Source: Deltaproteobacteria bacterium
GTDB taxonomy: Bacteria; JAEEML01
Direction: 5' to 3'
Assembly: GCA_016283195.1 (NCBI GenBank)
Contig: JAEEML010000144.1
Span: forward strand, 1-59,640
DNA length: 59,640 bases
Shown: positions 1-58,592 of the stretch, piece after piece
How positions within the stretch are numbered: position 1 is the first letter of the stretch
Layout: every line of letters begins with the position of its first letter
The notes under the pieces: model-generated
What the model saw: the letters and a program-made list of their open reading frames with translations, nothing else
The model's database searches: none
What the model was told of the DNA's origin: nothing
Translations under genes and position numbers: made by a program

Positions 1-284
1 ACCTCCTGGCCGAGCTCAATTTCCAATATAAAAGGCCCAATGGCCTAAATCCGGAAAATGGCCTCCATGATCAGCCTTTTGCCTTTACCGCTGCTTTAAT
101 GCCCACTCTCTCCATGGGCTATGGCAGCTATGCCCGCCCGCAACTGCGCCTGGTATATGCTCTTACGGTGCTTAACGATGCCGCTATGCGCACTTATGCC
201 GCCCTCGATGCCCGGCGCGATCGCCGCGTGCAACACTGGCTCGGAATAAATTGCGAATGGTGGTTTAACAGTTCAAGGCACTAA
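1..284 (+). CDS. Maltoporin-like outer-membrane porin, C-terminal fragment
   Basis: The reading frame is open from the left edge of the window, so this is the 3' end of a longer gene; the ATG at 99 is internal. About 93 residues are visible. They alternate polar and hydrophobic residues as in beta-strands and end in WWFNSSRH, with the penultimate strand reading GINCEWWF. The stretch PQLRLVYALTVLNDAA resembles the last strands of LamB-type maltoporins, where an R-x-R/K-x-x-Y strand is followed by a W-N-D/E loop. Such porins are outer-membrane trimers that admit maltodextrins. The gene lies 11 bases upstream of an alpha-amylase on the same strand, so a starch or maltodextrin uptake operon is a sensible reading. 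The family call rests on a short fragment; another 16- or 18-strand porin is possible. Confidence 0.6.
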   Translation, partial: LLAELNFQYKRPNGLNPENGLHDQPFAFTAALMPTLSMGYGSYARPQLRLVYALTVLNDAAMRTYAALDARRDRRVQHWLGINCEWWFNSSRH

Positions 285-295
285 GGAGGATCAAA

Positions 296-2347
296 ATGAA
301 AGCCAAATATTTTAATATTTTTGCCATGTTATTACTCTTAAGCCAGATGGCTTGCGTAACTCCCAAAGAAGTTGGCGGCGACCCGCACCTCACAAATAAT
401 GTGGTGGATTGGCGCGATGAAATTATTTACCAAGTGCTTATCGACCGCTTTGCCGACGGCGATTACAGCAATAATTATAATGTGGATACCGAAAACGATG
501 CCGGCTACCACGGCGGCGATTGGCAGGGGCTCATCGACAAACTTGATTACATTGCCGAGCTGGGCGTCACCACTCTCTGGATTTCGCCTGTGGTGAAAAA
601 TGTGGAAGAAGATGCCGGTTTTGCCAGTTACCACGGCTATTGGACACAAGATTTTGAAGCCACCAACCCGCACTTCGGCGACTTTACCATGCTGCGCAAA
701 ATGGTGGATGCCGCCCATGCCAAGGGCTTCAAAGTGGTGCTCGATATCGTGGTCAACCATGTGGGCCAGGCTTTTTATTATGACATCAATAAAAACGGCC
801 AGCCCGATGATTACTTCATCGGCCAGGGCTCACAAATTGGCCCCATCGGGCAAAACGATCCGGCCAGTGAGTTTTTGCGCATTCAGGAATGGGATCCCGA
901 TTTCAATATCGACGGCATTCAGGCTTGGACTTCCCTCGGCCCCTCCGGCGAAGCGCCGGCTATTTTTGTCAACTATCCGGCCATTAACCGCGTGCCGCCG
1001 CAGCCCTATCCCTTTGATCAGGACTGGGCCTATAACCGCAAAGGCCGTGTTACCGTGTGGACCACACCGGAAGTTTGCGGCTGCGAATCCTGGGGCTGCC
1101 CCTGGGACAACGAATGTCTGCGCAAACAAGAAACTCTGGGTGATTTCCCAGGCGGCTTAAAAGATATCAACACCAAAGATAAAACCGTGCGTGAAACTTT
1201 AATCGGCATTTTCTCCCGCTGGATCGATATCGGCGATTTCGACGGCTTCCGCATCGACACCTTAAAACATGTGGAGCACGATTATTTCTCTAATCCGGAA
1301 AACGGCTTTTGCCCGAACATCCGCAAACATGCCAAAGAGTTTGGCAAAGACAATTTCTTTATGTTTGGCGAAGCTTTCGACGGCAACGACAACCTTTTGG
1401 GCTCTTATACCCAGGGCGAAGGCGTGGACAGCGTCTTTTACTTTTCACAATATTATACGGTGTTTAGAGGTGCCATGCTGGGTAACGGCGACCGCACCTG
1501 CGAGATTGCCCGCCTGCACTGCCGGCGTAAAGGCTGCAGCAGTGACCCCTGCGGCGGCGGCGATGATTTTACTCAGCCAGTTTATAACAATGTTGGCAAA
1601 ACCAATGGCCCAACCAGCGAAGACGGCCAACTCTTAAACTCTCAGCAACTGGTAGTAAACTTTATTGAAAACCACGATGTGGGCCGCCTGGCTTTCTTTA
1701 TGGGTGCCGGCTGGAGCGATGATCTCAGAATGCAAGTTATCAAACAGGCTCTTGCCTACCTCATGTTTACCGAGGGCATCCCCTGCCTCTATTACGGCGT
1801 GGAACAAGGCTTCACCGGCGGTAACGACCCGGCCAACCGCGAGACCATGTGGCTGGATCGCAACTACACCACTCAGGAATTTAAAGACGGCCATTATCAA
1901 AGCGTCATGAAGAGCTATGACAGCACCGGCGACGGCATGAATGACACAGTCTGGCAGCCTTATGACACTAAAAACCCCTACTTTACCTGGATTAAGCAGC
2001 TAACTGCCATCAGAAAAGCCCATCTTGAGCTCTCACGCGGCGATTTTAATACCACTTACAGCACCACCGGCAGTAGCGGCAAAGACCACGGCATTTACGC
2101 TTTTGAGCGCACTTATGCCGGCAAAACCGCCGTTGCTGTCTTTAACTTTGATATGAATCAGGTAAGTGAAACCAGCGACGGCACCCAAAGTATGGCTGTC
2201 ACCGCCACTCCGGGCACCACCTTTACCGATGCTCTCGATAGTAGCTACACCGCCACTGTCACCTCCGGCGGCTGCCCGGCCAAAGCCGGCCAGGGCTGCT
2301 TAAATGTTTCTGTCCCATCCCGCGGCGTGCGTCTCCTGCTTTACTAA
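296..2347 (+). CDS. Alpha-amylase family glycoside hydrolase (GH13), secreted
   Basis: This 683-aa protein has the four GH13 signatures in order: region I DIVVNH (residues 150-155), region II with the nucleophile in DGFRIDTLKH (about 315-325), region III with the acid/base Glu in FMFGEAFDG (about 357-365), and region IV IENHDVGR (about 457-464). GH13 enzymes hydrolyse or rearrange alpha-1,4-glucans through a (beta/alpha)8 barrel. A Cys-rich insertion, with Cys near residues 262-277 and 402-422, is unusual and may be disulfide-bonded, fitting export. The N-terminus is a signal peptide ending SQMAC; the Cys suggests a lipoprotein but the lipobox is not canonical (Q at -3). An AGGAGG-type ribosome site precedes the ATG. 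The C-terminal 100 residues look like the usual beta-sandwich. It follows a maltoporin-like gene, so it probably digests starch or glycogen outside the inner membrane. Confidence 0.92.
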   Translation: MKAKYFNIFAMLLLLSQMACVTPKEVGGDPHLTNNVVDWRDEIIYQVLIDRFADGDYSNNYNVDTENDAGYHGGDWQGLIDKLDYIAELGVTTLWISPVVKNVEEDAGFASYHGYWTQDFEATNPHFGDFTMLRKMVDAAHAKGFKVVLDIVVNHVGQAFYYDINKNGQPDDYFIGQGSQIGPIGQNDPASEFLRIQEWDPDFNIDGIQAWTSLGPSGEAPAIFVNYPAINRVPPQPYPFDQDWAYNRKGRVTVWTTPEVCGCESWGCPWDNECLRKQETLGDFPGGLKDINTKDKTVRETLIGIFSRWIDIGDFDGFRIDTLKHVEHDYFSNPENGFCPNIRKHAKEFGKDNFFMFGEAFDGNDNLLGSYTQGEGVDSVFYFSQYYTVFRGAMLGNGDRTCEIARLHCRRKGCSSDPCGGGDDFTQPVYNNVGKTNGPTSEDGQLLNSQQLVVNFIENHDVGRLAFFMGAGWSDDLRMQVIKQALAYLMFTEGIPCLYYGVEQGFTGGNDPANRETMWLDRNYTTQEFKDGHYQSVMKSYDSTGDGMNDTVWQPYDTKNPYFTWIKQLTAIRKAHLELSRGDFNTTYSTTGSSGKDHGIYAFERTYAGKTAVAVFNFDMNQVSETSDGTQSMAVTATPGTTFTDALDSSYTATVTSGGCPAKAGQGCLNVSVPSRGVRLLLY

Positions 2348-2872: not shown

Positions 2873-3739
2873 TTAATCACCATGGTTCTTTTTCCATATA
2901 CGGCTTTGCAACGTTGAGGGATACGAATCACCGGCTAAAAAATACCAAGCGTAGCTACTTAAAAAACTGTCATCACCGAAAGCATCATTTAGCCACTCCA
3001 GCGGACCGCGCAAAATGCCATCAACTTTCATGCGAAAATCGGATTTCACTTTAAATTTGCGCACATAATTAAGGCAGGCGTCATCGTTATATTCTCGCGT
3101 GAAATTGCAAGTGATTTTAGAAACATAAGAATTTTTCTCCCAAGGTAGCAAATATATTTTGGTCCTTATGAGGGTAACATCTTTTTCTCCTCCATCTTTA
3201 AGAGGCAATTTGTGGTGTTCTTTTATTAAAGTTAAAATAAAGGCACTTGTTCCAAGTAGATCTTTTTCTTTCTTCAAAGTATATTGGCTATACTTACCTG
3301 TTGATAGCTGATATTCTGCCTCCCTGCGAAGGTTGCCTTCATTAAGTTCTCCATTCCATCTATGCATAAACTTGCTATTATCCTTCTCATGATCAGGAAT
3401 ATCAAACATAACAGAATCAATAGTTTCGCTTCCAGGATTGACGGAAATCACATCACTTATCTTACTTTTACCATGCCAGTCAATAAATTGATAAGGCGCC
3501 ATATTTTCTCGAAAATAGTGATTATATGTTTCATCGATATATATATAAGTGTCCCCATATAGCGGGAAAGCGTAATCCCAGCCATCAGGCACCGGCACCA
3601 TATAATAACTATAATTTAAGAAATAATTAAGCAGATGTGATGAAGAAGTTACCGGCACTTCTCCTGGCTCAGGAGCAGGTGTAGAGCATGCAGGAGCTAT
3701 GAGAGATAAAATTAGGCATATTTTAAATAAAGACTTCAT
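2873..3739 (-). CDS. Lipoprotein, paralogue of 4058-4987; putative immunity-like protein
   Basis: This 288-aa protein begins with a signal peptide and lipobox-like segment (LIAPAC, Cys about residue 18), so it is probably a lipoprotein. It is paralogous to the 309-aa lipoprotein at 4058-4987. Both start the mature part with a PGE-[VI]-P motif, share a central stretch with TLIK, and share a strong C-terminal block (REYNDDACLNYVRKFK here, RKYNDDACLNYARKFK there). I do not recognise a named family. It is the last gene of the minus-strand cluster 6333 to 2873. That cluster contains a non-secreted 449-aa protein coupled to one paralogue, and a decayed copy of the same unit. A role as an envelope-located immunity or accessory protein is inference only. 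Confidence 0.75.
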   Translation of the reverse strand: MKSLFKICLILSLIAPACSTPAPEPGEVPVTSSSHLLNYFLNYSYYMVPVPDGWDYAFPLYGDTYIYIDETYNHYFRENMAPYQFIDWHGKSKISDVISVNPGSETIDSVMFDIPDHEKDNSKFMHRWNGELNEGNLRREAEYQLSTGKYSQYTLKKEKDLLGTSAFILTLIKEHHKLPLKDGGEKDVTLIRTKIYLLPWEKNSYVSKITCNFTREYNDDACLNYVRKFKVKSDFRMKVDGILRGPLEWLNDAFGDDSFLSSYAWYFLAGDSYPSTLQSRIWKKNHGD

Positions 3740-3769
3740 AATTCACTACCTTTTTGTTTTTTTATGGCT

Positions 3770-3952
3770 TCAGTATTCATACTGAGCCCCCTTAGGATAA
3801 GGCACGGTAATACTTACGCCTCCCCATTCAGCACCTTTTACATAGTGGGAAATTGCTATTTCGCCAACTTCCGCCTCATCTTCAGAGCAGGCAGGCAGCA
3901 GTAATAGAGCCCCAAAGAGCAAAGCAAAGGCGGATAGTAATTTAGCTTTCAT
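3770..3952 (-). pseudogene. Truncated lipoprotein paralogue (60 aa)
   Basis: The signal peptide is clear (lipobox LLPAC). The mature part has only about 38 residues. Its GEIAISHYV...ITVPYPKGAQYEY aligns with GEIPIASYH...LLIPFPAKAHYECRY of the 309-aa lipoprotein (4058-4987) and then stops where the paralogue continues for about 250 residues. It is therefore a 5' remnant, or possibly a short functional lipoprotein. Its ATG overlaps the stop of the upstream remnant (ATGA). This is the same junction as between the intact 449-aa and 309-aa genes, so it was inherited from a duplication of that gene pair. Confidence 0.65.
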
Positions 3953-4057
3953 TGTGCACCTTCTTGAACAGTATTCAAATTATCCTTAAACTCCTTATGT
4001 AATACCATTCCTTCAGTCAGAATGTTTGCTTCACCGGCCCCCTGCTGGTTTAGCGCA
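3949..4057 (-). pseudogene. Remnant of a second copy of the 449-aa gene
   Basis: Reading leftward from about 4026 the frame encodes NILTEGMVLHKEFKDNLN followed by a few residues and a stop. The intact 449-aa protein contains NLLTEGMALHKEVKENWN at about residues 309-326. The rest of the gene is missing: there is no start, and the upstream part of this frame overlaps the end of the 309-aa gene. The stop overlaps the start of the truncated lipoprotein at 3952 as ATGA, reproducing the coupling of the intact pair. It is best explained as a deleted duplicate of the two-gene unit. Confidence 0.65.
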
Positions 4058-4987
4058 CTACTGCTGCTTAGAATTGGGATATGTATACAAATAACACTCC
4101 TCGCCCATATCGCCATCCACAACGTTTTTGGCATATCTCTGAAGATGTTTAACCAAAGCTGATTCAGAGCGAATTGTTTGGATAAAAAACGCGTGATTAA
4201 ATGCTTCCCAATAAACCTGGAAATCAGATACTAATTTAAATTTCCTGGCATAATTCAGGCAGGCGTCATCATTATATTTTCTGGTAGTAAGACAGGTTAT
4301 TACCACTGTACCGGTGTTCATCTTATTGACAGCTGGTATATAGATAGAAGTCTCTTTAAGGGTAGTTTCTTCTGTTGAGCCATCATCGAGGAGTACCGGA
4401 TATGAATCTTTTATCAAAGTGCCAACATAGGCATCATTACCCAGCCAAGTGGTTTTTTTATACTCAAAACGGTCATATTCTCCTTGCGCTATGCGATAAT
4501 CGGCTGAGGCTCGAATCTTCTTTTCAAAAAAGCGCTTTTCTCCAATTTTTTCTTTTTCTGAGTAATCAAAATCTTTACCTAATTTAAATTCATGTACATA
4601 GTCATTTGGTGGCTCAATAGTTCTATTAATAGCAATAGCATCTATATGAGGAGGCAGATACTGTCCGTTCTTAGTTAATGACTTTTGGATGGCCCATTCA
4701 CGAGTAAGTGGGTGTTTATTGCCTTCCAACAGAAAAGCATAGTCAAAAGGTGGTATTTTTTCTGTTAAAAAGGCGGTTCTTTCAATTGGAAAAGTTTGCT
4801 CATAACGGCACTCATAGTGGGCTTTGGCTGGAAAGGGAATGAGTAAATTTGTTCTAGTACTTTCAAAAGCTCGGTGATAGCTAGCTATAGGTATTTCCCC
4901 AGGCCCATCGGGAATATCTTCGTTGCCACAAGAGGTTAAAACAAGCAACATACCAATAATTAAAGCATAACGGCCTATTGATTTCAT
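4058..4987 (-). CDS. Lipoprotein coupled to the 449-aa gene; putative immunity-like protein
   Basis: This 309-aa protein has a signal peptide with a canonical-type lipobox (LVLTSC, Cys20), so it should be anchored in the envelope. Its start overlaps the stop of the 449-aa gene by ATGA, which implies translational coupling and a stoichiometric partnership. It is homologous to the 288-aa lipoprotein at 2873-3739 and to the truncated one at 3770-3952. The conserved features are a PGEIPI start of the mature region, a GTLIKDSYPVLLDDGS segment near residue 190, and the KYNDDACLNYARKFK block near 240. No enzymatic motif is apparent. In polymorphic toxin loci the gene directly after the toxin is its immunity gene, and membrane-acting toxins often have lipoprotein immunity partners. 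That parallel is an inference here. Confidence 0.75.
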   Translation of the reverse strand: MKSIGRYALIIGMLLVLTSCGNEDIPDGPGEIPIASYHRAFESTRTNLLIPFPAKAHYECRYEQTFPIERTAFLTEKIPPFDYAFLLEGNKHPLTREWAIQKSLTKNGQYLPPHIDAIAINRTIEPPNDYVHEFKLGKDFDYSEKEKIGEKRFFEKKIRASADYRIAQGEYDRFEYKKTTWLGNDAYVGTLIKDSYPVLLDDGSTEETTLKETSIYIPAVNKMNTGTVVITCLTTRKYNDDACLNYARKFKLVSDFQVYWEAFNHAFFIQTIRSESALVKHLQRYAKNVVDGDMGEECYLYTYPNSKQQ

Positions 4988-6333
4988 ACTATATCACCGT
5001 AGCCAACTTGGGCTTTTTTTGCCTCCAGAGCATTTAACAAATCACCAAGTGTTTGTTCGATTATTTCATCAGAATGGTAGCCATCAGGAATATATTTTTG
5101 CACTATCTCAGAGAGAGCTGGCATTAATATCGCTTTAAGTTCTTCTTTATTTTCAATAGGTATTTTATCAAGAGGATTTAACTTTTCTAACTTGGAAAGA
5201 ATAACTTCTTCCACCCCTATAGTTATGATTTTGGCCGTATTCTCTTGGGTGCTCAATTCGTTACTTCCTGCGCGAGATATAGCTTCAGCAGTTTTTATAG
5301 CCACAGAAGATATGGGCAGCAAAAGCTCTGGTAAAGCAGCTGCTATGCCAACTCCAGTGGCCATGCCGCCCATAATGTTATAAATCATATTCCAGTTTTC
5401 TTTAACCTCTTTGTGTAAAGCCATTCCTTCAGTGAGAAGATTTTTATCACGAAGTAACACCCCAAATTCTAAGGCCTTTTTCTGCAAAGAATGAGGGTAT
5501 TCTTCTATCCAAAGTTTTGGATCGTTTGTCGCAATAGTATTTACACCAGCATTTTTATACCCAGCTCCATATGCTTGGCTAAAGCTTTTAGCATGTTCTA
5601 AGCGTTTGTTTTCAGCAGGCGAAAGCTCGTTTTTCTTGCCAAGATCAGCTATATCCGCATTGGCTTTATCTAAAAGTTCTTGCGCTGTGTGGCGGCAAAG
5701 CGCCTTTGAAGCGCCCATTGCCAGTTCTTTGGCAAATTTCTGTGACAAGTTATTAATTTTTTTCTTTTCGACTGGAGTTTTTTGCTGATAACCTTTTTTT
5801 TGCTGAAAGGCATGCTGCAGTAAAAAAGTAAGATCTTCTATGGTGCAGTCTTTAAACTGTTTATAAAAACCTATTTCATTGTATTTGACTGCTTGCGTTA
5901 TGATGCCGCCTATTTGCGATGGCCTTTCTAGTTTACTTACCAACTCTTCTGCCACCTTGGCAACATCAGAATGCAGGAGTTCTTGCTGATGTTGGGTTAT
6001 TAGAGTAGCTTCTATCTTATTATCTGCATTGTTGTCCTTGTTGTTAAAAATTTTTTTGAACATGGAGCGCAGAGAATTTTCCGAATCTGACTTAATACCG
6101 CAATTAAGACTGGTTTGGCACTGTTTGTCATTGCCAATAAGCAGATTATTTGGCGTTTCATTTATTATCAACATATCTATGGAATCAGGTTGGCGACATG
6201 CTGGGGTACTCTTCTGGCAATTTGGAGAGGCCTTCGTTTGCTTGTTGTCTGTTTTCAGAAAATTGTCTTGTTCAATATTGCAAAATGGAGAATAGCCATT
6301 TGTACTTGGTGATTGTCCAATAGAATTATTCAT
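4984..6333 (-). CDS. 449-aa protein with glycine-rich hydrophobic segment; candidate effector
   Basis: There is no signal peptide. The first 100 residues are polar, Asn/Gln/Ser-rich and look disordered, with several Cys (about 38, 46, 72, 78). Residues about 100-325 are helical and charged. Residues about 327-365 form a glycine/alanine-rich hydrophobic stretch (MIYNIMGGMATGVGIAAALP and following) that could insert in a membrane. A helical, acidic tail follows and ends QVGYGDIV. I do not recognise the family. It is first in a minus-strand cluster, coupled by ATGA to a lipoprotein, and a fragment of a second copy survives downstream with the same junction. A non-secreted protein with a disordered leader and membrane-active segment next to a lipoprotein resembles a contact-dependent effector with its immunity protein. 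No secretion system is encoded nearby. Confidence 0.7.
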   Translation of the reverse strand: MNNSIGQSPSTNGYSPFCNIEQDNFLKTDNKQTKASPNCQKSTPACRQPDSIDMLIINETPNNLLIGNDKQCQTSLNCGIKSDSENSLRSMFKKIFNNKDNNADNKIEATLITQHQQELLHSDVAKVAEELVSKLERPSQIGGIITQAVKYNEIGFYKQFKDCTIEDLTFLLQHAFQQKKGYQQKTPVEKKKINNLSQKFAKELAMGASKALCRHTAQELLDKANADIADLGKKNELSPAENKRLEHAKSFSQAYGAGYKNAGVNTIATNDPKLWIEEYPHSLQKKALEFGVLLRDKNLLTEGMALHKEVKENWNMIYNIMGGMATGVGIAAALPELLLPISSVAIKTAEAISRAGSNELSTQENTAKIITIGVEEVILSKLEKLNPLDKIPIENKEELKAILMPALSEIVQKYIPDGYHSDEIIEQTLGDLLNALEAKKAQVGYGDIV

Positions 6334-6392: not shown

Positions 6393-7895
6393 TTACATAT
6401 TCCGGCGCCAGATTTTCACCACATAATATGGGGCAATATGTCTATATGCCGTTCCACTACCAGTAGAAGTGACAGTAACAGAACCACTCGGTTTGGCAGA
6501 CATAGTAAAGTTATAAAGCTTGTAACCAGAACCGGAGTTTCGGCTCCATTCTATATTGCCTGCTTCTGTCGAAAAAACACCTGTTGTGCCACTGGGTGTA
6601 GTATTTTGATCAGAACGCCCTACAAGTCCACCAAAGGTACCTTTAATTTGATTGCCGCTAAATGTAGCCGTATGTGTATGTGAAGGCAGATTGGCTTCTG
6701 ACAAAGTAATGTTATTGGTTCCGCCCTCTTTTCGAACGGCACTATATTCAGTAATGCCATTAATTTGTCCAACCAAAGTTGCGCCCTGAGCAATTTCAAT
6801 CCAATTGCCACCAAACTTAGTGTTTGGGTGGTCATTTGTTACTGAAATATATACACTGCCAACCGGATAGATAAGGTCAACCAGAGCGGCTTTTAGCTTT
6901 TTCTGATCCAGCTTGGCCACATCGATAGCTGCATCATCGGCAATATCGATGTTTTTTATAGTTCCATCTGTTATTTTAGCAGAAGTAATAGAATTATCGG
7001 CTATTTGAAATGTAGGAATAGCCCCACTGGCTATGTTTACCGCCTGAATACAGCCTTTACATTCCAAAGCATAGGCTATGGTGGCTTTATCGGCTAAAGT
7101 GGCCGTGTCGGCTTTGGTGGCCGTGTCGGCTAAAGTAGCTTTATCGGCTAAAGTGGCCGTGTCAGCTAAAGTAGCCCTATCTGCTATAATAGCTTTGGTT
7201 GCTGTGTCAGCTAAAGTAGCTTTATCGGCTGTCGTAGCTTTATCGGCTATCGTAGCTTTATCGGCCTTAAGTGCGCTATCGGCTGTAGTAGCTTTATCGG
7301 CCTTAAGTGCGCTATCGGCTGTAGTAGCTTTATCTGCTGTAGTAGCCTTATCGGCTTCCAAGGCCTTATCAGCTGTAGTAGCCTTATCAGCTGTAGTAGC
7401 CTTATCGGCTGTGGTAGCTTTATCGGCTGTGGTAGCTTTATCGGCTGTGGTAGCTTCATCGGCCTTAAGTGCGCTATCGGCACTGGTGGCGTGCCCGGCT
7501 TCCACAGCTTCATCGGCCAGCTCGGCTTTGGCAGCCACAATAGCATACGGCATTGCTCTTATAGCTATGCGCGGTTTTAATACTTCTTCACCAATTTTAA
7601 TGCCCAAATAAAGCTCTTTAGCGCTAGCAATTTTATCGACATCTATGCCATCTATCGTGATTGCATAAAATCCATTCTTTACTGTTACTACATCGCGCTT
7701 ACCACAAAGCGCTTCGGCATTATCATCACTGCCTGAATAAATTGTGGCCTCGATAGTGCGATCAACATCGTTAATAGGCTGTCCGTTTTGCATAATGCGG
7801 CCCTGATGGGTAAAAGAGAGCGGAACTCCGGCATAGGCCGGCGCTGCTATCCCAATAAGAGATACAATAACAGCTAAAAAACATACCTTATTCAT
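6393..7895 (-). CDS. Secreted fibre protein with KATTAD repeats and tail-collar-like C-terminus
   Basis: This 500-aa protein starts with a signal peptide (cleavage after PAYA). Residues about 24-125 form a beta-rich domain (VPLSFTHQGRI...). Residues about 130-272 are nearly pure hexapeptide repeats of the type KATTAD, KATLAD or SALKAD. A short spacer follows with ITSAKITDGTI-type repeats. From about residue 335 there is a domain beginning YPVGSVYIS with GGNWIEI, LPSHTHTATF and a PYYVVKIWRR end, which resembles phage tail-collar or short-tail-fibre domains. The protein is paralogous over both ends to 46603-48171. In both places it follows a lipoprotein gene. The likely role is a surface-displayed, possibly trimeric adhesin or fibre; no phage structural genes lie nearby. 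Confidence 0.8.
   Translation of the reverse strand: MNKVCFLAVIVSLIGIAAPAYAGVPLSFTHQGRIMQNGQPINDVDRTIEATIYSGSDDNAEALCGKRDVVTVKNGFYAITIDGIDVDKIASAKELYLGIKIGEEVLKPRIAIRAMPYAIVAAKAELADEAVEAGHATSADSALKADEATTADKATTADKATTADKATTADKATTADKALEADKATTADKATTADSALKADKATTADSALKADKATIADKATTADKATLADTATKAIIADRATLADTATLADKATLADTATKADTATLADKATIAYALECKGCIQAVNIASGAIPTFQIADNSITSAKITDGTIKNIDIADDAAIDVAKLDQKKLKAALVDLIYPVGSVYISVTNDHPNTKFGGNWIEIAQGATLVGQINGITEYSAVRKEGGTNNITLSEANLPSHTHTATFSGNQIKGTFGGLVGRSDQNTTPSGTTGVFSTEAGNIEWSRNSGSGYKLYNFTMSAKPSGSVTVTSTGSGTAYRHIAPYYVVKIWRRNM
7079..7496 (-). repeat. 18-bp tandem repeats encoding KATTAD hexapeptides
   Basis: On the plus strand the unit reads GTAGCTTTATCGGCTGTG and variants, repeated in register for about 23 units. 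Several neighbouring copies (around 7381-7450) are identical or differ at one or two bases. Such a tract can expand or contract by slippage without changing frame. It lies wholly inside the fibre gene. Confidence 0.85.
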
Positions 7896-7916
7896 AAAAA
7901 ACCTCCTTATGGTTTA

Positions 7917-8603
7917 TTAATTCCAAGAGCCGTTACTTATAGTAACCGTGAGACCGTTGCTACCTTCCATAATGCCTGTGCCAACACCTTCAACCACTTC
8001 AACAGCAATATCACCAGCAGCATTCTCAAAACGTCCGCCCATTGGCGTAAGTACATAAGCGGAACTGCCGCGGGCGGTTTGGGCAAATACCGTGGTAAAC
8101 GAGGAGACAAATGGCTGAGATAACGGAATATAACTGCGTGATCTAAGTAATTCATTTATAGTCAACTGGTAGGTTGAGCCGCTTTTTAAGAGATTATTGG
8201 TTTTTATTAAAAGTTTATCTTCCAGTACTTCAACCGAGAGCGGCACGCTTTCGTTCTGAGTGCGTTTTAAACTAACAGCGCTGGAGGCATCTTCGGCCGA
8301 AAGCGGGGCGCTAAAACGCACCGTAATAAGCTGCGTAGTCAGCGGCACATTTTGGGCACCGTCAAAGGGCTCCACTGCGGTCACACAAAAATCAGCATAT
8401 TTGCGGCAAAAATTATTCTCGCAGCGATTACATACCCCCGGGCAATCAGAGGGAACTTTGCAAAGCCGCCCCTCCGGGCATACCCCATTGGGACATGTCT
8501 CTTCCGGTGCTTCTCCGCTATATGTCGGTGGGGTACTGCATGAAACACAGGTTAACGAAAAAACGAAAACAAAGGCACAAAAGCCATAGCGCGTGGTGCT
8601 CAT
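7917..8603 (-). CDS. Cys-rich lipoprotein with Big_5 Ig-like domain
   Basis: This 228-aa protein begins with a signal peptide and Cys at residues 19 and 22 (LTCVSC), probably a lipoprotein with an atypical lipobox. Residues about 37-73 are Cys-rich (CPNGVCPEGRLC, CNRCENNFC). Residues about 74-170 match the bacterial Ig-like Big_5/SbsA type: VTAVEPFDGAQNVPL, ITVRFSAPLS, then LKSGSTYQLTI. The last 30 residues (VEVVEGVGTG...VTISNGSWN) are echoed in the lipoprotein at 45949-46584 (VEILGGAMSG...VQINEGSWK). It lies 21 bases upstream of the fibre gene on the same strand. The pair probably forms an operon in which this lipoprotein could help anchor or export the fibre. Confidence 0.75.
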   Translation of the reverse strand: MSTTRYGFCAFVFVFSLTCVSCSTPPTYSGEAPEETCPNGVCPEGRLCKVPSDCPGVCNRCENNFCRKYADFCVTAVEPFDGAQNVPLTTQLITVRFSAPLSAEDASSAVSLKRTQNESVPLSVEVLEDKLLIKTNNLLKSGSTYQLTINELLRSRSYIPLSQPFVSSFTTVFAQTARGSSAYVLTPMGGRFENAAGDIAVEVVEGVGTGIMEGSNGLTVTISNGSWN

Positions 8604-45948: not shown

Positions 45949-46584
45949 ATGAGGCGGACAATCTTAGTAATGGGTGTCTTACTCTTACCGCTTTTGTTGA
46001 GCAGCTGTTCCAATAAACCGGAACAGAATGTGCCGCGCACCAGAGGCGTTAACGAAGCATGTGATGACACAAAAAACCTCTGTGTGGACGGGCTATATTG
46101 CGACAACGGCAAATGCCGCGAATTGTGCAACGAAAACGCCCCCTGCGGCAGTAATGAAAAATGCATTGATAATCGCTGTGTGCCTTGGAGCAATCCAGGT
46201 AGCAATACCGATATTCCAGGTAGTAACACCGATGAGCCTGGCAGCAATACCGATCTTCCCGGCACACAATCACTGGGCGATAATTGCGATGCGCAAAACA
46301 AATGCGCTTCTGGCCTCTCCTGCCTTAGCGGCACCTGTCACAAAAATTGTCAAAATAGCTCAGAATGCCAGACAGGCGAAGAGTGTAGAAATAGTGTTTG
46401 TCAGTTGCCACAAATAGCCGGGGAGACAAACAAAGTGGCTCTGCCGGCCGGCGGCGGACTCACCAACATTGCCGGAAAAACCCAAGGCTCGCGCTACAAA
46501 GTGGAAATACTGGGCGGCGCCATGTCCGGGGCGGCCAAGGGAACTCAAAACTCTGTACAAATCAACGAAGGCTCTTGGAAATAG
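45949..46584 (+). CDS. Cys-rich lipoprotein paired with collar-fibre gene
   Basis: The 211-aa protein has a lipobox LLLSSC (Cys20). Two Cys-rich modules, NEACDDTKNLCVDGLYCDNG (with following C) and GDNCDAQNKCASGLSCLSGTC, flank a PGSNTD linker repeat. The C-terminal part (KVEILGGAMSG...VQINEGSWK) resembles the C-terminus of the Big_5 lipoprotein at 7917-8603. Between them the family preserves a fibre gene directly downstream (18 bases here). The protein is probably envelope-anchored; its role with the fibre is inference. Confidence 0.75.
   Translation: MRRTILVMGVLLLPLLLSSCSNKPEQNVPRTRGVNEACDDTKNLCVDGLYCDNGKCRELCNENAPCGSNEKCIDNRCVPWSNPGSNTDIPGSNTDEPGSNTDLPGTQSLGDNCDAQNKCASGLSCLSGTCHKNCQNSSECQTGEECRNSVCQLPQIAGETNKVALPAGGGLTNIAGKTQGSRYKVEILGGAMSGAAKGTQNSVQINEGSWK
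46195..46257 (+). repeat. Three 21-bp repeats encoding PGSNTD linkers
   Basis: Units at 46195, 46216 and 46237 encode PGSNTDI, PGSNTDE and PGSNTDL. The units differ at several silent sites, so this is an old in-frame expansion. It acts as a flexible linker between the two Cys-rich modules. Confidence 0.85.
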
Positions 46585-46602
46585 AGCATAAAGGAGCAAA
46601 CT

Positions 46603-48171
46603 ATGAGAAAGAGCATTTTAAGAGGACTTATGGCTTTTGCCCTGCTGGCGGGCAGCACAACTATGGCAAAGGCCGATGTGGCAAATGTACCGCTCTCTTT
46701 TACTCATCACGGCCTTATTTGGGACGGTGATGAGCTGGCTAGCGGCAACATCAGCATCACCGCCACCATTTATGATGGGGAGGGCAATGCCATCAAAACG
46801 GTTACTAAAGAAGTTACCGTGGAAAATGGCTTTTATAACCTCACCATAGACGAATTAAGCCTTGATGCCATTTTAGCCGCCAAAGACAAATTGGAGCTGG
46901 GCCTAAAAATCGGCGATGATGAAATGGCCGCCCATATTCCCATTTCTTCGGTGCCTTTTGCCATAAGAGCGGCTCATGCCGATAGCGCCTCGACAGCTGC
47001 AAACCTGAGCTGTGACCACTGTGTGACAGAGGATTTGCTCTCAGGAGATATCAATTTAAAACTGGCCAATAGCGGTAACTCTTCCGGAGAAATGGTTATC
47101 CCCAATGGCTCAATCAACAACGAAAAAATTGATTTTAATTATGCCGCTTCCAATGCCAAAGGCGGCCCGGCGACAGAGCTTGCAGCTGAAGTTGTTACCA
47201 CAAACACCATCAAAGAGCTGGCAGTTACCTCCACTAAACTCGCTAACGGCGCCGTTACCAAAGACAAACTAGGCGACAGCTCCGTCGATAGCGCCAAAAT
47301 TTCCGATGGGACAGTTGAACTGGCTGATTTGCATGTGGACTCGGTCAATAGCGCTAAAATTGTCGATGGCTCTATCACTGCCGATGATTTGGGAGCAGAT
47401 TCAGTAATAACAGCCAAAATACTGGATAAAAATGTTACCAATGCCAAATTGGCGGACAATGCTGTAACCACCGACAAAATAGCCAACGGCACCATCACTA
47501 ATGATGATATTAAAAATGGTACCATCGGTTACGGTAAAGTTGTGGCCTCAGAATTTTTAAACAAAATGTATCCTGTGGGCTCTATATATATCAGCACTGC
47601 TCTCAAGACAGCCGCGGAAGTTGCCAGTGCCCTGGGCGGCGGTACATGGGAAGCTTATGCGGCCGGGCGCGTTTTAGTTGGCGTTGGTACAAGCGACCAA
47701 AGTTTCACAATAGGCACCAATTCCGGATCCAGCACAACCAGTTACACACCGGTTGGAACAGTTGGAGGCCACACACTTACTGTAGCTGAGATACCGTCTC
47801 ACAATCACTCATTTACAGGCTCAGCGGCAACAATTACCGTAAAAGGCGGAGATCACACCCATGGTCCAGGTACCCTAACGGGAAAATATTATGGTCGCGA
47901 TAATGATAATAGTGGCGAAACTGTATTTGGTGCTCAAATGGATAACTATAGCGCTTATGATACCTGGGCAAAAGATGGCTCTGTGGTGATCAACGGTGGC
48001 AAGACAGCCGCTTCCGGTAGCCTAACATTGACAGGTTCTTATACTCCAGCTGGGTCTATCGGAAATAAAGGTGGCGGCGGCTCACACAATCACAGTTTCA
48101 CCGGCACCAGCGCCAAAATCAGCACCTTGCAACCTTACATTGTTGTTTATATGTGGCGGCGCAAAGCATAA
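46603..48171 (+). CDS. Secreted fibre protein with tail-collar-like C-terminus
   Basis: The 522-aa protein has a signal peptide (GSTTMAKA, then DVANVPLSFTHHG). Its N-terminal domain (VPLSFTHHGLIW, ITATIYDGEG, VTVENGFYNLTIDE) is clearly paralogous to that of 6393-7895. In place of the KATTAD tract it has ITDGTI-type repeats at about 190-310 (SAKISDGTVELADLHVDSVN, TITNDDIKNGTIG). The C-terminal domain starts YPVGSIYIST and has GGGTWEAYAAGRVLVGVG, IPSHNHSF, and ends LQPYIVVYMWRRKA, as in collar or short-tail-fibre proteins. It probably forms an exported trimeric fibre. A terminator follows. Confidence 0.82.
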   Translation: MRKSILRGLMAFALLAGSTTMAKADVANVPLSFTHHGLIWDGDELASGNISITATIYDGEGNAIKTVTKEVTVENGFYNLTIDELSLDAILAAKDKLELGLKIGDDEMAAHIPISSVPFAIRAAHADSASTAANLSCDHCVTEDLLSGDINLKLANSGNSSGEMVIPNGSINNEKIDFNYAASNAKGGPATELAAEVVTTNTIKELAVTSTKLANGAVTKDKLGDSSVDSAKISDGTVELADLHVDSVNSAKIVDGSITADDLGADSVITAKILDKNVTNAKLADNAVTTDKIANGTITNDDIKNGTIGYGKVVASEFLNKMYPVGSIYISTALKTAAEVASALGGGTWEAYAAGRVLVGVGTSDQSFTIGTNSGSSTTSYTPVGTVGGHTLTVAEIPSHNHSFTGSAATITVKGGDHTHGPGTLTGKYYGRDNDNSGETVFGAQMDNYSAYDTWAKDGSVVINGGKTAASGSLTLTGSYTPAGSIGNKGGGGSHNHSFTGTSAKISTLQPYIVVYMWRRKA

Positions 48172-55007: not shown

Positions 55008-55120
55008 CGCCCGCCGCAGGCGGGCGGATCGCGCTGATTTTTCAAAATTTTACAGGGTACCCTGTATATTAGGTATTGAAAATACCTAAACCATTTTTCC
55101 GTGCCTATTGGCACAAGGAG
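55008..55120 (+). promoter_or_regulatory. Conserved promoter/leader module, copy A
   Basis: Four dyads in order: CGCCCGCC/GGCGGGCG (55008-55026), the palindrome ACAGGGTACCCTGT (55052-55065), TTAGGTAT/ATACCTAA with a TGAAA loop (55069-55089), and GTGCC/GGCAC (55101-55114). AAGGAG follows (55115-55120). A -35 candidate TTCAAA (55041) and a -10 candidate TATATT (55065) are 18 bases apart, with the palindrome in the spacer. Confidence 0.75.
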
Positions 55121-55126
55121 TGCAGT

Positions 55127-56068
55127 ATGAAAAAGTGTAAAGTCTTAGTTTCAGCAATGTTAACTCTCGCCCTCACGGCCTGCGGCGGTGCCGGTGAACA
55201 AGGGCCGGAAGGCAAGCAAGGCCCGCAAGGACTCAAAGGTGATGCCGGGAGCGACGGCCAACCGGGCAGCGATGGTGAAGGCTGTTATGTAGTGAAAAAA
55301 GATGCCGACCACGGCATTGTTATTTGCCCGGCCGATGGCTCATCATACGTTATCTACAGCCCGGAAAACTTGCCCAAAGCCAATGGTTTACCTAATGGCA
55401 ACGGCGGCTATCTTTACTGCAATGCCGGTTATTTTGGAGAAAGTTGCACCGCCTGCACCTGTGAGCGCGGCACTTGCAACGATGGCCTAAACGGAAGTGG
55501 TGAATGTTCTTGCTCCAGAGGTTACACCGGCAAAGATTGTTCCGTACTTGCCCTTGGTTACATGGCCGACACCAACGGCACCGCTTACAAAACAACCATA
55601 ATCGGCGAACAAATCTGGATGGCTGAAAATATGGCCAGCGATACAGCAACCGACGGCAGCTCAATCACTTGCTATGCCAATACCGACGCTGATCCGGATT
55701 TTGTGGAACATTATGGCTGCCTCTATAATTGGGAAGATGCCATGAAAGTTTGCCCTAAGGGCTGGCATTTACCAACACAGACCAATTTTGATGGCTTGCT
55801 AAATATTGCCGGCGATAACGCCCAAAACAAAACAGATAATCTGCGTTCCGCAACTTGGCTAAATGGCAATGACAGTCTTGGCTTTAATGCTCTTCCTGCC
55901 GGAGACAAGCTCAGTACCAATTACCTTCATTTTGGTACCGGTGCTCGCTTTTGGTCAGCCACAGGCAATACTACCCTCGCCTTCTACTTGGGGCTCGGTC
56001 CTAACAATGCTTATATGGACAGAACCGGCGTGGAAGCTGCTTTCTCCGTGCGCTGCATAAAAGACTAA
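55127..56068 (+). CDS. FISUMP-domain lipoprotein, array copy A
   Basis: The 313-aa product starts at the ATG at 55127, with AAGGAG 6 bases upstream. An in-frame TTG 17 codons earlier would translate the hairpins and is rejected. The lipobox is LALTAC (Cys19). Ten Gly-X-Y triplets follow (GEQGPEGKQGPQGLKGDAG and on). Next come a Cys pair (GCYVVKKDADHGIVIC) and an EGF-like unit (GYFGESCTACTC, CSRGYTGKDC). The FISUMP domain from about residue 157 has IGEQIWMAENMA, CYANTDADPDF, CPKGWHLPT, FNALPAG, and SVRCIKD. The N-terminal 140 residues are nearly identical to copy B. Confidence 0.88.
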   Translation: MKKCKVLVSAMLTLALTACGGAGEQGPEGKQGPQGLKGDAGSDGQPGSDGEGCYVVKKDADHGIVICPADGSSYVIYSPENLPKANGLPNGNGGYLYCNAGYFGESCTACTCERGTCNDGLNGSGECSCSRGYTGKDCSVLALGYMADTNGTAYKTTIIGEQIWMAENMASDTATDGSSITCYANTDADPDFVEHYGCLYNWEDAMKVCPKGWHLPTQTNFDGLLNIAGDNAQNKTDNLRSATWLNGNDSLGFNALPAGDKLSTNYLHFGTGARFWSATGNTTLAFYLGLGPNNAYMDRTGVEAAFSVRCIKD

Positions 56069-56084
56069 ATGCGCGTCTCTCTCA

Positions 56085-57335
56085 TTAATCAAGCAGACTT
56101 TTATCCAGCAAAAAGTTAATAATTCCAATTTGTTCTATGCCGTTTTCATCCCGCCGGAGTTTTATATTGTCGCGCGTGATAATGAGCTTTTTAAAACTAT
56201 CACCAATAATATTCAAAGGTCTTTTTTCCTGCCGGCTCTTGGCCTCCGTCTCTAAATAGAGCGCTGACTGAATATAATATTTTTGGCTCCCTTTACTGGC
56301 GATGAAGTCAATCTCCAGCTGCTTTTTGATAGTTTTGCCATTAGCCCCTTTGTCAAAAGTCTCTATAACTCCAACATCCACCGAAAAGCCGCGCGCTAAA
56401 AGTTCATTATATATAATATTTTCCATGAGATGGCTTTCTTCCGTCTGGCGAAAGTTAAGCCGGGCATTACGCAAACCAACATCTGCCAAATAATATTTGG
56501 CCGTGGCAGCTATATATCTCTTGCCCTTAATATCATAGCGCGACGCCTTTGAAAGCATGAAGGCATCCTCAAAGTAGCCGATATAATTCTTGATGGTGTG
56601 ATCGCTAATAGTCTTTTGTTTAACACTCTTAAAAGTTTTTGAAAGTTTTAGGGGATTAGTAAGCGAACCAACAGCAGATGACAAAATATCCAATAATTCA
56701 TCAAGTTCTACACTGTTGCGCACTTTGTGACGCTCAAGAATATCGGCCACATATACCTCTTTAAAGAGATTTTTGAGATACGCCGCTTTTTCTTCAACCT
56801 CAGTCAGGCTAAGGACATAGGGCATACCTCCGTAATTCAGATAATCATCGAAAGCTTCATCCTTAGAACCGGAATATACCGAAGAATATTCTGCAAAACT
56901 AAGGGGATAAACCCTTATCTCATCGCCCCTTCCACGAAACTCGGTGATAATATCGGAGGAGAGGAACTTGGAATTACTGCCGCTTACATAAACATCAACA
57001 TTCGCCAGATGCAAAAAGCCGTTAAGCGCCTCTTCAAAATTTTGTATAAATTGAATTTCATCGAGGAGCAAAAAATAATCGGAGGAATCTTTAAGCAAAC
57101 TGCTTACATGATTATAAAGGCTCTCGGCTGAGCGCAATGGTTTATTCCGAATATCATCAAGAGCTATTCTGATTATGTGGTCGGCCGCTATGCCGCTTTC
57201 CAGCAAATAGTTATAAAAAATGGTGTTCAAAAGATAGGACTTACCGCAGCGCCGTATGCCGGTTATAATTTTGATCAGCCCATTTTTTTGTTTACGAATA
57301 AGCTTTTGAAGATATATGTCACGCTTAATCTGCAT
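56085..57335 (-). CDS. AAA ATPase with DUF4143 domain
   Basis: The 416-aa protein has an AAA_14-type ATPase with Walker A ITGIRRCGKSYLL (about residue 25), Walker B YFLLLDEIQFI (about 90), sensor VSGSNSKFLSS, and the RGRGDEIRVYPLSFAEY segment. A C-terminal DUF4143 domain has YYLADVGLRNARLNFRQTEE and ENIIYNELLARGF, which resembles a nuclease-like fold (LEIDFIAS near 342). Members are widespread, often variably present, and of unknown function. It lies on the opposite strand between two FISUMP genes, preceded by two similar hairpins. Confidence 0.85.
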   Translation of the reverse strand: MQIKRDIYLQKLIRKQKNGLIKIITGIRRCGKSYLLNTIFYNYLLESGIAADHIIRIALDDIRNKPLRSAESLYNHVSSLLKDSSDYFLLLDEIQFIQNFEEALNGFLHLANVDVYVSGSNSKFLSSDIITEFRGRGDEIRVYPLSFAEYSSVYSGSKDEAFDDYLNYGGMPYVLSLTEVEEKAAYLKNLFKEVYVADILERHKVRNSVELDELLDILSSAVGSLTNPLKLSKTFKSVKQKTISDHTIKNYIGYFEDAFMLSKASRYDIKGKRYIAATAKYYLADVGLRNARLNFRQTEESHLMENIIYNELLARGFSVDVGVIETFDKGANGKTIKKQLEIDFIASKGSQKYYIQSALYLETEAKSRQEKRPLNIIGDSFKKLIITRDNIKLRRDENGIEQIGIINFLLDKSLLD

Positions 57336-57346
57336 TTACTCTTCCC

Positions 57347-57384
57347 ATTGCGAATATTGGTGGAAATCCACCTTTTTTCGCAAT
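57347..57384. promoter_or_regulatory. Hairpin 1 upstream of the DUF4143 gene
   Basis: Outer arms ATTGCGAA (57347) and TTCGCAAT (57377) and inner arms GGTGG and CCACC enclose an AAAT loop. It is 11 bases from the DUF4143 start codon and may overlap the ribosome site. A second, similar dyad lies at 57419. Confidence 0.65.
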
Positions 57385-57418
57385 AACTATAGTATTTCGG
57401 AGCAGAGGACAATCATTT

Positions 57419-57456
57419 ATTGCGAATTTTGGTAAAAAAACACCTTTTTTCGCGAT
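57419..57456. promoter_or_regulatory. Hairpin 2 upstream of the DUF4143 gene
   Basis: ATTGCGAA (57419) pairs with TTCGCGAT (57449) with one mismatch, and the interior GGT/ACC pair and the CCTTTTTTCGC run match hairpin 1. The two copies start 72 bases apart. Confidence 0.6.
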
Positions 57457-57496
57457 TACCATTTTCAAAAGATCCGCGCGGTTTAGAGGAGAAATT

Positions 57497-57605
57497 GCCG
57501 CCGCAAGCGGCGATCGCGCCAGTTTTTCAAAATTTTACAGGGTACCCTGTATATTAGGTATTGAAAATACCTAAACCATTTTTCCGTGCCCATTGGCACA
57601 AGGAG
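57497..57605 (+). promoter_or_regulatory. Conserved promoter/leader module, copy B
   Basis: The same order as copy A: GCCGC/GCGGC (57497-57511), ACAGGGTACCCTGT (57537-57550), TTAGGTAT/ATACCTAA (57554-57574), GTGCC/GGCAC (57586-57599), then AAGGAG. From TTTTTCAAAATTTTACAG to the start codon it is almost identical to copies A and C. Candidate -35 TTCAAA is at 57526 and -10 TATATT at 57550. Confidence 0.75.
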
Positions 57606-57611
57606 CGCAGT

Positions 57612-58592
57612 ATGAAAAAGTGTAAAGTCTTAGTCTCAGTAGTGTTAACTCTAGCCCTAGCTGCCTGCGGCAGCGCCGGTGAGCAGGGGCCAGCTGGCCC
57701 AGAGGGCAAGCAAGGCCCGCAAGGACTCAAAGGCGATGCCGGCAGCGACGGCCAGCCGGGCAGCGATGGCGAAGGCTGCTATGTGGTGAAAAAAGATGCC
57801 GATCACGGCATAGTTATCTGTCCGGCAGATGGCTCTTCGTATGTCATCTATAGCCCGGAAAACTTGCCTAAATCCAATGGTTTACCTAATGGCCAGGGCG
57901 GCTATCTTTACTGCAATGCCGGCTACTTTGGAGAAAATTGCGCTGCTTGCACCTGTGAGCACGGCACTTGCAACGACGGCCTAAATGGAAGTGGTGAATG
58001 CACCTGTGCAGCCGGATATATCGGCAAAAACTGCGACATAGAAAACCTTCTAAAGTACAACAGCAAAATATATAAAGTGGTGCAAATTGGCGAGCAAATC
58101 TGGATGGCCGAAAATATGGCTACTGATACAGCCACAGATGGCAGCGCTGTGACTTGCTATGCCAATACCAACGCCGACCCGGTTTTTGTGGAAAATTACG
58201 GCTGCTTATATACTTGGGCTGATGCTATGAAGATTTGTCCCACCGGTTGGCGTTTACCGGAAAAAAGCGACTTCGATGACTTATTAACCTATGTGGAAAA
58301 TAATCGCACTAGCAGTAGCAACTTCTTGGCCCTTATAGCTAAAAGCACTGCTTGGACTGGGCACCAAAACCAAGGTGGTGATGACTTTGCTTTTTCTGCG
58401 CTACCAGCCGGTCGCAGGGGCGTCGATGGCAATTACAGCCTTTTTGGCACACTCACCGGTTTCTGGTCGGCTACATATAATGCTATCGGCACCGCCAACA
58501 CCCTGAGCATCAGTAGCAATAATAGCCCTACCGCCATTACAGGCACGACCGACAAAAGTCTCGCCTATTCCGTCCGCTGCGTGAAACAATAA
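57612..58592 (+). CDS. FISUMP-domain lipoprotein, array copy B
   Basis: The 326-aa product starts at the ATG at 57612. Lipobox LALAAC (Cys19). Eleven Gly-X-Y triplets, one more (GPA) than copy A. The EGF-like unit reads GYFGENCAACTC with CAAGYIGKNCD. From about residue 150 the FISUMP domain has IGEQIWMAENMA, CYANTNADPVF, CPTGWRLPE, FSALPAGRRG, YSLFGTLTGFWSA and SVRCVKQ. The first 140 residues are almost identical to copy A, while the FISUMP domain diverges. It is separated from the VapC-like gene on the opposite strand by 18 bases. Confidence 0.88.
   Translation: MKKCKVLVSVVLTLALAACGSAGEQGPAGPEGKQGPQGLKGDAGSDGQPGSDGEGCYVVKKDADHGIVICPADGSSYVIYSPENLPKSNGLPNGQGGYLYCNAGYFGENCAACTCEHGTCNDGLNGSGECTCAAGYIGKNCDIENLLKYNSKIYKVVQIGEQIWMAENMATDTATDGSAVTCYANTNADPVFVENYGCLYTWADAMKICPTGWRLPEKSDFDDLLTYVENNRTSSSNFLALIAKSTAWTGHQNQGGDDFAFSALPAGRRGVDGNYSLFGTLTGFWSATYNAIGTANTLSISSNNSPTAITGTTDKSLAYSVRCVKQ

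What the first reader, a model, noticed from the sequence alone, without database searches (positions are those of the whole stretch)
2873..6333. Effector-immunity-like locus with a decayed duplicate unit
The 449-aa gene and the 309-aa lipoprotein gene are joined by an ATGA overlap. Downstream is a fragment of a second 449-aa-like gene (NILTEGMVLHKEFKDNLN), again joined by ATGA to a truncated lipoprotein, and then a third full-length lipoprotein. Orphan toxin-tail plus immunity modules downstream of an intact pair are characteristic of polymorphic toxin loci. The 449-aa protein has a disordered leader and a Gly-rich hydrophobic segment, and the lipoproteins would sit in the envelope. No family is recognised, so this could be a new membrane-acting toxin type.
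Basis: partly seen in the sequence, partly recalled or inferred. Interest (0 to 1): 0.75.

Follow-up and report, generated by a model that had tools for sequence, protein, structure and literature searches.

The report
Orphan toxin–immunity-like lipoprotein gene array
In a bacterium with no close sequenced relatives, one gene for a helical protein with no export signal overlaps a lipoprotein gene, followed by the broken remains of a second such pair and another intact lipoprotein; this looks like a toxin with tandem immunity proteins, but no relatives were found to confirm it.

Summary
The anatomy is real. On the minus strand, T1 (449 aa, no signal peptide, disordered first ~82 residues, otherwise predicted helical, one Gly-rich hydrophobic stretch) overlaps lipoprotein L1 (309 aa) by ATGA. 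A 22-residue T fragment overlaps a 60-aa lipoprotein stub L2 by ATGA, then comes intact lipoprotein L3 (288 aa; 29% identical to L1, E=2e-23). Two corrections: the fragment matches T1 residues 296-317, not the tail; and ATGA overlaps are not rare for lipoprotein genes here (8 of 67 sampled). No homologue of T1 or L was found by profile libraries, 98 'relative' genomes, GTDB contig patterns (L only), or viral, phage and plasmid searches. GC3 of the three genes (0.31-0.33) is near the bottom 2% of sampled genes. A low-confidence model of L1 resembles DcrB (PsbP/Mog1 fold; E=0.016). The genome gives no match to the T6SS sheath gene or Phage_sheath_1, but has an atypical non-flagellar type III apparatus. 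Best reading: a horizontally acquired effector with tandem periplasmic lipoprotein immunity proteins, resembling the TspA/TsaI locus (about 45%). Main rival: a lineage-specific envelope-lipoprotein operon without a toxin. Toxicity, delivery and T-L interaction are unproven.

The parts
4984..6333 (-). T1, 449-aa candidate effector: no signal peptide, residues 1-82 disordered (N/S/Q/T/P/K-rich), rest predicted helical
   Evidence: no profile match over any cut-off
5296..5376 (-). Gly-rich hydrophobic segment of T1 (residues 320-346), a possible membrane-inserting stretch
   Evidence: Kyte-Doolittle 19-residue maximum 1.87 at residue 328; interpretation inferred
5383..5448 (-). T1 residues 296-317, the only part shared with the downstream fragment
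4058..4987 (-). L1, 309-aa lipoprotein, 4-bp overlap with T1
   Evidence: lipobox LTSC at residues 17-20 (sequence)
4208..4540 (-). C-terminal domain of L1 (about residues 150-260), DcrB/Mog1-like topology, holding the conserved ITCxxTRxYNDDACLNYxRKFKxxSDF motif and two cysteines shared with L3
   Evidence: fold weakly supported
3967..4032 (-). T2 remnant: 22 residues homologous to T1 296-317; its frame runs to a stop at 3949 that overlaps L2 by ATGA
3770..3952 (-). L2, truncated lipoprotein (60 aa: signal peptide plus first conserved block)
3736..3780 (-). 14-codon ORF ending in ATGA overlap with L3; possibly the last codons of a third T, not statistically supported
   Evidence: p~0.12
2873..3739 (-). 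L3, 288-aa full-length lipoprotein, paralogue of L1
6393..7895 (-). Upstream secreted fibre-like protein (signal peptide, TADKA repeats, Gp10_C domain), 59 bp from T1; possibly same transcript
7917..8603 (-). Upstream Big_5-domain lipoprotein, 21 bp from the fibre gene; possible first gene of the transcript
   Evidence: promoter-like site at 8669-8640 is the best of the scan, but the scan finds fewer sites than shuffles

Best explanation
A horizontally acquired effector-immunity array. T1 is a protein made in the cytoplasm and delivered to neighbouring cells by a contact-dependent route, where its hydrophobic segment would act at the envelope. L1, and its diverged paralogue L3, are periplasmic lipoproteins that bind T1-type effectors and block self- or sibling intoxication. 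The locus once held at least two T-L units. Recombination deleted most of T2 and of L2 but kept a spare immunity gene, L3, as expected if L3 still protects against related toxins. Shown: gene order, paralogy, decay, lipoprotein signals, low GC3. Inferred: toxicity, binding, envelope target, delivery. The route is open: the T6SS and contractile-sheath families tested gave no match; a non-flagellar type III apparatus is present in the genome but not linked to the locus.
For: T1 has no signal peptide while all three L have lipoprotein signals, the arrangement expected when a toxin acts in the periplasm (X-Tfe/X-Tfi; Tle/Tli). Two intact plus one truncated L, and one intact plus one fragmentary T. 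The S. aureus TspA/TsaI locus has the same picture: toxin, tandem immunity paralogues, and a pseudogene matching part of the toxin (PMC9484751). GC3 0.31-0.33, near the bottom 2% of 329 genes of at least 250 aa. L1 and L3 share two cysteines (C232/C243 and C211/C222), compatible with a periplasmic disulphide. No relatives found, as expected for fast-evolving conflict genes but also for any orphan gene.
Against: No toxin, trafficking or immunity domain recognised. No secretion-apparatus gene noticed near the locus. T1 has no confident fold or fold match. The T fragment lacks the C-terminal region, so it is not a classical orphan module. ATGA coupling is common here. Tandem lipoprotein arrays also exist as such, for example S. 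aureus lpl (mentioned in PMC9484751). With a single genome there is no test that T and L travel together.
Confidence: 0.45

Rival explanations
1. A lineage-specific envelope operon with no toxin: the L proteins are an expanded family of surface or periplasmic lipoproteins, T1 is a co-transcribed cytoplasmic or envelope-associated helical protein, and the whole extends the upstream lipoprotein-fibre operon.
For: The upstream lipoprotein (7917-8603) and fibre (6393-7895) genes lie in the same direction at 21 and 59 bp spacing. The genome is rich in lipoproteins, 67 of 615 called genes, and in paralogous surface genes. Tandem lipoprotein arrays are known (S. aureus lpl, mentioned in PMC9484751).
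Against: The other lipoprotein-fibre pair in the window (45949-48171) has no T-L genes after it. GC3 of T and L is lower than in most genes. Decay of T together with L in one repeated unit suggests a T-L module rather than lipoprotein expansion alone.
Confidence: 0.33
2. T1 is a type III secretion substrate (effector or hydrophobic translocator) aimed at a eukaryotic host or at prey, and the lipoproteins are accessory envelope factors rather than immunity proteins.
For: The genome has a non-flagellar type III apparatus: SctV over the hrcV cut-off and below the FlhA cut-off, SctR/FliP, a SctJ lipoprotein, FliG-like and SctL. T1 has a disordered polar N-terminus and a helical body with a hydrophobic segment.
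Against: No type III gene or recognisable chaperone at the locus. sctV would lie about 8 kb from L3 only if contigs C83 and C3 really join, with unrelated genes between. Five cysteines in the leader are unusual for such signals (own knowledge).
Confidence: 0.12
3. The L proteins are exported chaperones or adaptors of T1, analogous to the DcrB-related Eag chaperones that hold effector transmembrane segments, rather than inhibitors.
For: Foldseek best match is DcrB, with Mog1 also listed. Eag (DUF1795) proteins are homologous to DcrB and bind effector transmembrane segments (PMC7773334).
Against: L carries a lipoprotein signal, so it would be outside the cytoplasm where loading occurs. No T6SS sheath gene found. 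No PF08786 sequence match.
Confidence: 0.07

Closest known systems
S. aureus T7SS TspA/TsaI locus
   Same: Membrane-depolarising toxin followed by tandem diverged immunity paralogues and a pseudogene matching part of the toxin (PMC9484751)
   Different: TsaI are DUF443 membrane proteins, and the toxin is T7SS-delivered in a Gram-positive; no sequence relation found here
Tle/Tli phospholipase pairs of T6SS (Tle1-Tli1, Tle3-Tli3)
   Same: Periplasm-acting toxin with lipoprotein immunity encoded beside it (PMC9860674)
   Different: No lipase domain in T1; T6SS sheath gene not found in this genome
Xanthomonas X-T4SS X-Tfe/X-Tfi pairs
   Same: Cytoplasm-made effector without signal peptide and a lipobox-bearing periplasmic inhibitor (PMC10933484)
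   Different: No recognised enzymatic domain in T1; a T4SS was not searched for in this genome
DcrB / Eag (DUF1795, PsbP-Mog1 fold)
   Same: Predicted topology of L1 residues ~150-260; DcrB is the best Foldseek match
   Different: No PF08786 sequence match; L has an extra N-terminal ~130 residues and the YNDDACLNY motif
Myxococcus needleless T3SS* with Kil pili
   Same: This genome's type III set looks like that basal class; the system serves contact-dependent prey lysis (PMC12075869; PMC3459982)
   Different: No link between T-L and the apparatus shown; the text search of PMC12075869 found no mention of immunity

Membership tests
Effector-immunity (polymorphic toxin) locus | Candidate toxin and immunity genes adjacent, co-directional | tested here: met
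   4-bp overlap T1/L1; base rate 8/67, so weak
Effector-immunity (polymorphic toxin) locus | Immunity compartment fits the toxin's site of action | tested here: inconclusive
   L carry lipoprotein signals, T1 has none; T1's site of action unknown
Effector-immunity (polymorphic toxin) locus | Recognisable toxin or trafficking domain | tested here: not met
   Pfam, NCBIfam, PADLOC, PHROGs: nothing significant for T1
Effector-immunity (polymorphic toxin) locus | Orphan toxin C-terminal modules with immunity genes downstream | tested here: not met
   Fragment is T1 residues 296-317, the C-terminal 132 residues have no counterpart
Effector-immunity (polymorphic toxin) locus | Toxicity and specific neutralisation | not testable with these tools
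   Needs expression assays
Effector-immunity (polymorphic toxin) locus | T and L co-occur across genomes | tested here: inconclusive
   No homologue of either in any collection searched; T1 was not scanned against genome contigs
DcrB / PF08786 | Sequence match to the family model | tested here: not met
   No PF08786 hit up to E=1 for L1 or L3
DcrB / PF08786 | PsbP/Mog1-like fold | tested here: inconclusive
   Foldseek E=0.016, prob 0.98, but model pLDDT 41
T6SS effector | T6SS in genome (VipB/TssC PF05943) | tested here: not met
   No match; control E. coli rings
Contractile injection (eCIS/tailocin) cargo | Sheath gene PF04984 | tested here: not met
   No match; three controls ring
Type III secretion substrate | Type III apparatus in genome | tested here: met
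   SctV, SctR/FliP, SctJ, SctL, SctQ-like
Type III secretion substrate | Secretion signal/chaperone, secretion shown | not testable with these tools
   Disordered polar N-terminus only

The most novel reading that the evidence does not exclude
T1 is an antibacterial, envelope-acting substrate of the genome's basal non-flagellar (needleless-like) type III system, and L1/L3 are its lipoprotein immunity proteins, which would be an effector-immunity pair for that class of machine.
Probability: 0.07. Interest if true: 0.85.

Novelty: new member of a known kind. Interest (0 to 1): 0.4.

Why it matters
If right, it adds a toxin family and a lipoprotein immunity family from a lineage whose phylum has no other genome in the held set, and gives a testable candidate cargo for a genome whose only export machine of the three kinds tested is a basal type III system. 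If wrong, it is an orphan envelope operon.

Tried and rejected
No homologue by any route: own genome has only these copies; 98 'relative' genomes, all only same-domain kin; the phylum holds one genome; 15 genomes incl. Myxococcota; the phylum of the best TsaD match held one genome; plasmids and phages for T1 and L3, plasmids only for L1; viral contigs; GTDB contigs with the L alignment. PDB sequence search: nothing. T1 structure: single-sequence model of pLDDT 39.5, no fold match. A third T-tail before L3 looked tempting by eye but failed shuffles. 'ATGA = effector-immunity' rejected as an argument on base rate.

Full report
What is there. Transcribed leftwards, the window holds T1 (4984-6333, 449 aa), L1 (4058-4987, 309 aa), a T fragment whose frame ends at 3949, L2 (3770-3952, 60 aa) and L3 (2873-3739, 288 aa). 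T1/L1 and fragment/L2 overlap by ATGA. L1 and L3 are paralogues (29% identity, E=2e-23) with a shared block ITCxxTR[KE]YNDDACLNYxRKFKxxSDF. L2 keeps the signal peptide and the first conserved block of L1 and stops there; its mature part scores above all 2000 shuffles. The T fragment matches T1 residues 296-317 at 13 of 22 positions, and 76% over 63 nt.

The fragment is not a toxin tail: it is an internal piece, followed by five further codons and a stop, and the final 132 residues of T1 have no counterpart. ATGA junctions are weak evidence: in 0.64 Mb of this genome (window included), 31 of 615 called genes and 8 of 67 lipoprotein genes start with a 4-bp overlap onto the gene before. What is informative is that the T-then-L order with the same overlap recurs in the degraded unit. 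A 14-codon ORF before L3 also ends in ATGA (3736-3780), but its similarity to T1's end is not above chance.

Character of the proteins. T1 has no signal peptide; residues 1-82 are rich in Asn, Ser, Gln, Thr, Pro and Lys and hold five of its seven cysteines. The model is all-helical after residue 82 but of low confidence (pLDDT 39.5), and its only strongly hydrophobic segment peaks at residues 328-346. The L proteins have lipoboxes and, in L1 and L3, two matching cysteines. The L1 model is poor overall (pLDDT 41) but blocks within residues 151-220 reach 59-80, and Foldseek's best match is DcrB (E=0.016, probability 0.98), with Mog1 also listed. The Pfam DcrB model does not match by sequence. 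This is a lead, not a classification.

Origin. GC3 of T1, L1 and L3 is 0.31-0.33 against a mean of 0.50 (SD 0.066) for 329 genes of at least 250 aa, near the bottom 2%, in the company of genes on L124 and L089 that look by sequence like CRISPR-Cas and McrBC-type genes (names by my reading). The upstream fibre gene (0.34) is also low. Acquisition by transfer is likely but not proven. No homologue was found. The scans by short peptide patterns find close relatives only, and the T1 scan of GTDB contigs was not run, so absence is provisional. The organism is phylogenetically isolated: the held set contains no other genome of its phylum, and the best YidC matches are 38-41%, with Myxococcota prominent.

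How it would work. A toxin made without a signal next to inhibitors that carry lipoprotein signals is the arrangement of Tle/Tli and X-Tfe/X-Tfi pairs (PMC9860674; PMC10933484). A toxin followed by tandem diverged immunity genes and a toxin-fragment pseudogene is the arrangement of TspA/TsaI (PMC9484751). I therefore think it most likely that T1 is an envelope-acting effector and L1/L3 are immunity lipoproteins (about 45%). A toxin-free envelope operon remains a serious rival (about 33%), because nothing here shows toxicity, binding or delivery.

Delivery. The T6SS sheath family VipB/TssC and Phage_sheath_1 gave no match in the genome; T4SS and other routes were not searched. Type III genes are present: FliP/SctR, SctV over the hrcV cut-off and below the FlhA cut-off, a single YscJ/FliF-family protein closest to SctJ, FliG-like and SctL, SctQ-like and FliO-like. 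That mixture resembles the basal Myxococcales class (PMC3459982; PMC12075869). Contig C83 with sctV overlaps the first 387 bases of the window at 97.7% identity, so sctV may lie about 5 kb beyond the window's left end; unrelated genes intervene. This makes a type III route possible, nothing more.

Noticed in passing
window 1-387 and G000 contig C83 (L089 1-387): The window's left end overlaps the start of contig C83 (inverted) at 97.7% identity, so the two contigs probably adjoin; 9 mismatches suggest strain variants or assembly ends.
   Followed up: partly
L087 16468-19699, L089 5562-7730, L092 16066-18986: Atypical non-flagellar type III secretion genes scattered over three contigs (SctV, SctJ lipoprotein, FliG-like, SctL, SctP-like, SctQ-like, FliO-like, SctR), similar to the Myxococcus basal type.
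   Followed up: partly
window 6393-8603, 45949-48171; L087 1813-3159: Paralogous secreted fibre-like proteins (VPLSFTH N-terminus, tail-fibre-like C-terminus), in two cases preceded by a lipoprotein gene; only one is followed by T-L genes.
   Followed up: partly
window 55076-58592: Two near-duplicate lipoprotein genes with collagen-like and EGF-like stretches (55076-56068, 57561-58592) flank an ATPase-like gene on the opposite strand (56085-57335).
   Followed up: no
L124 3434-9622: Low-GC3 block that reads like CRISPR-Cas genes by eye.
   Followed up: no
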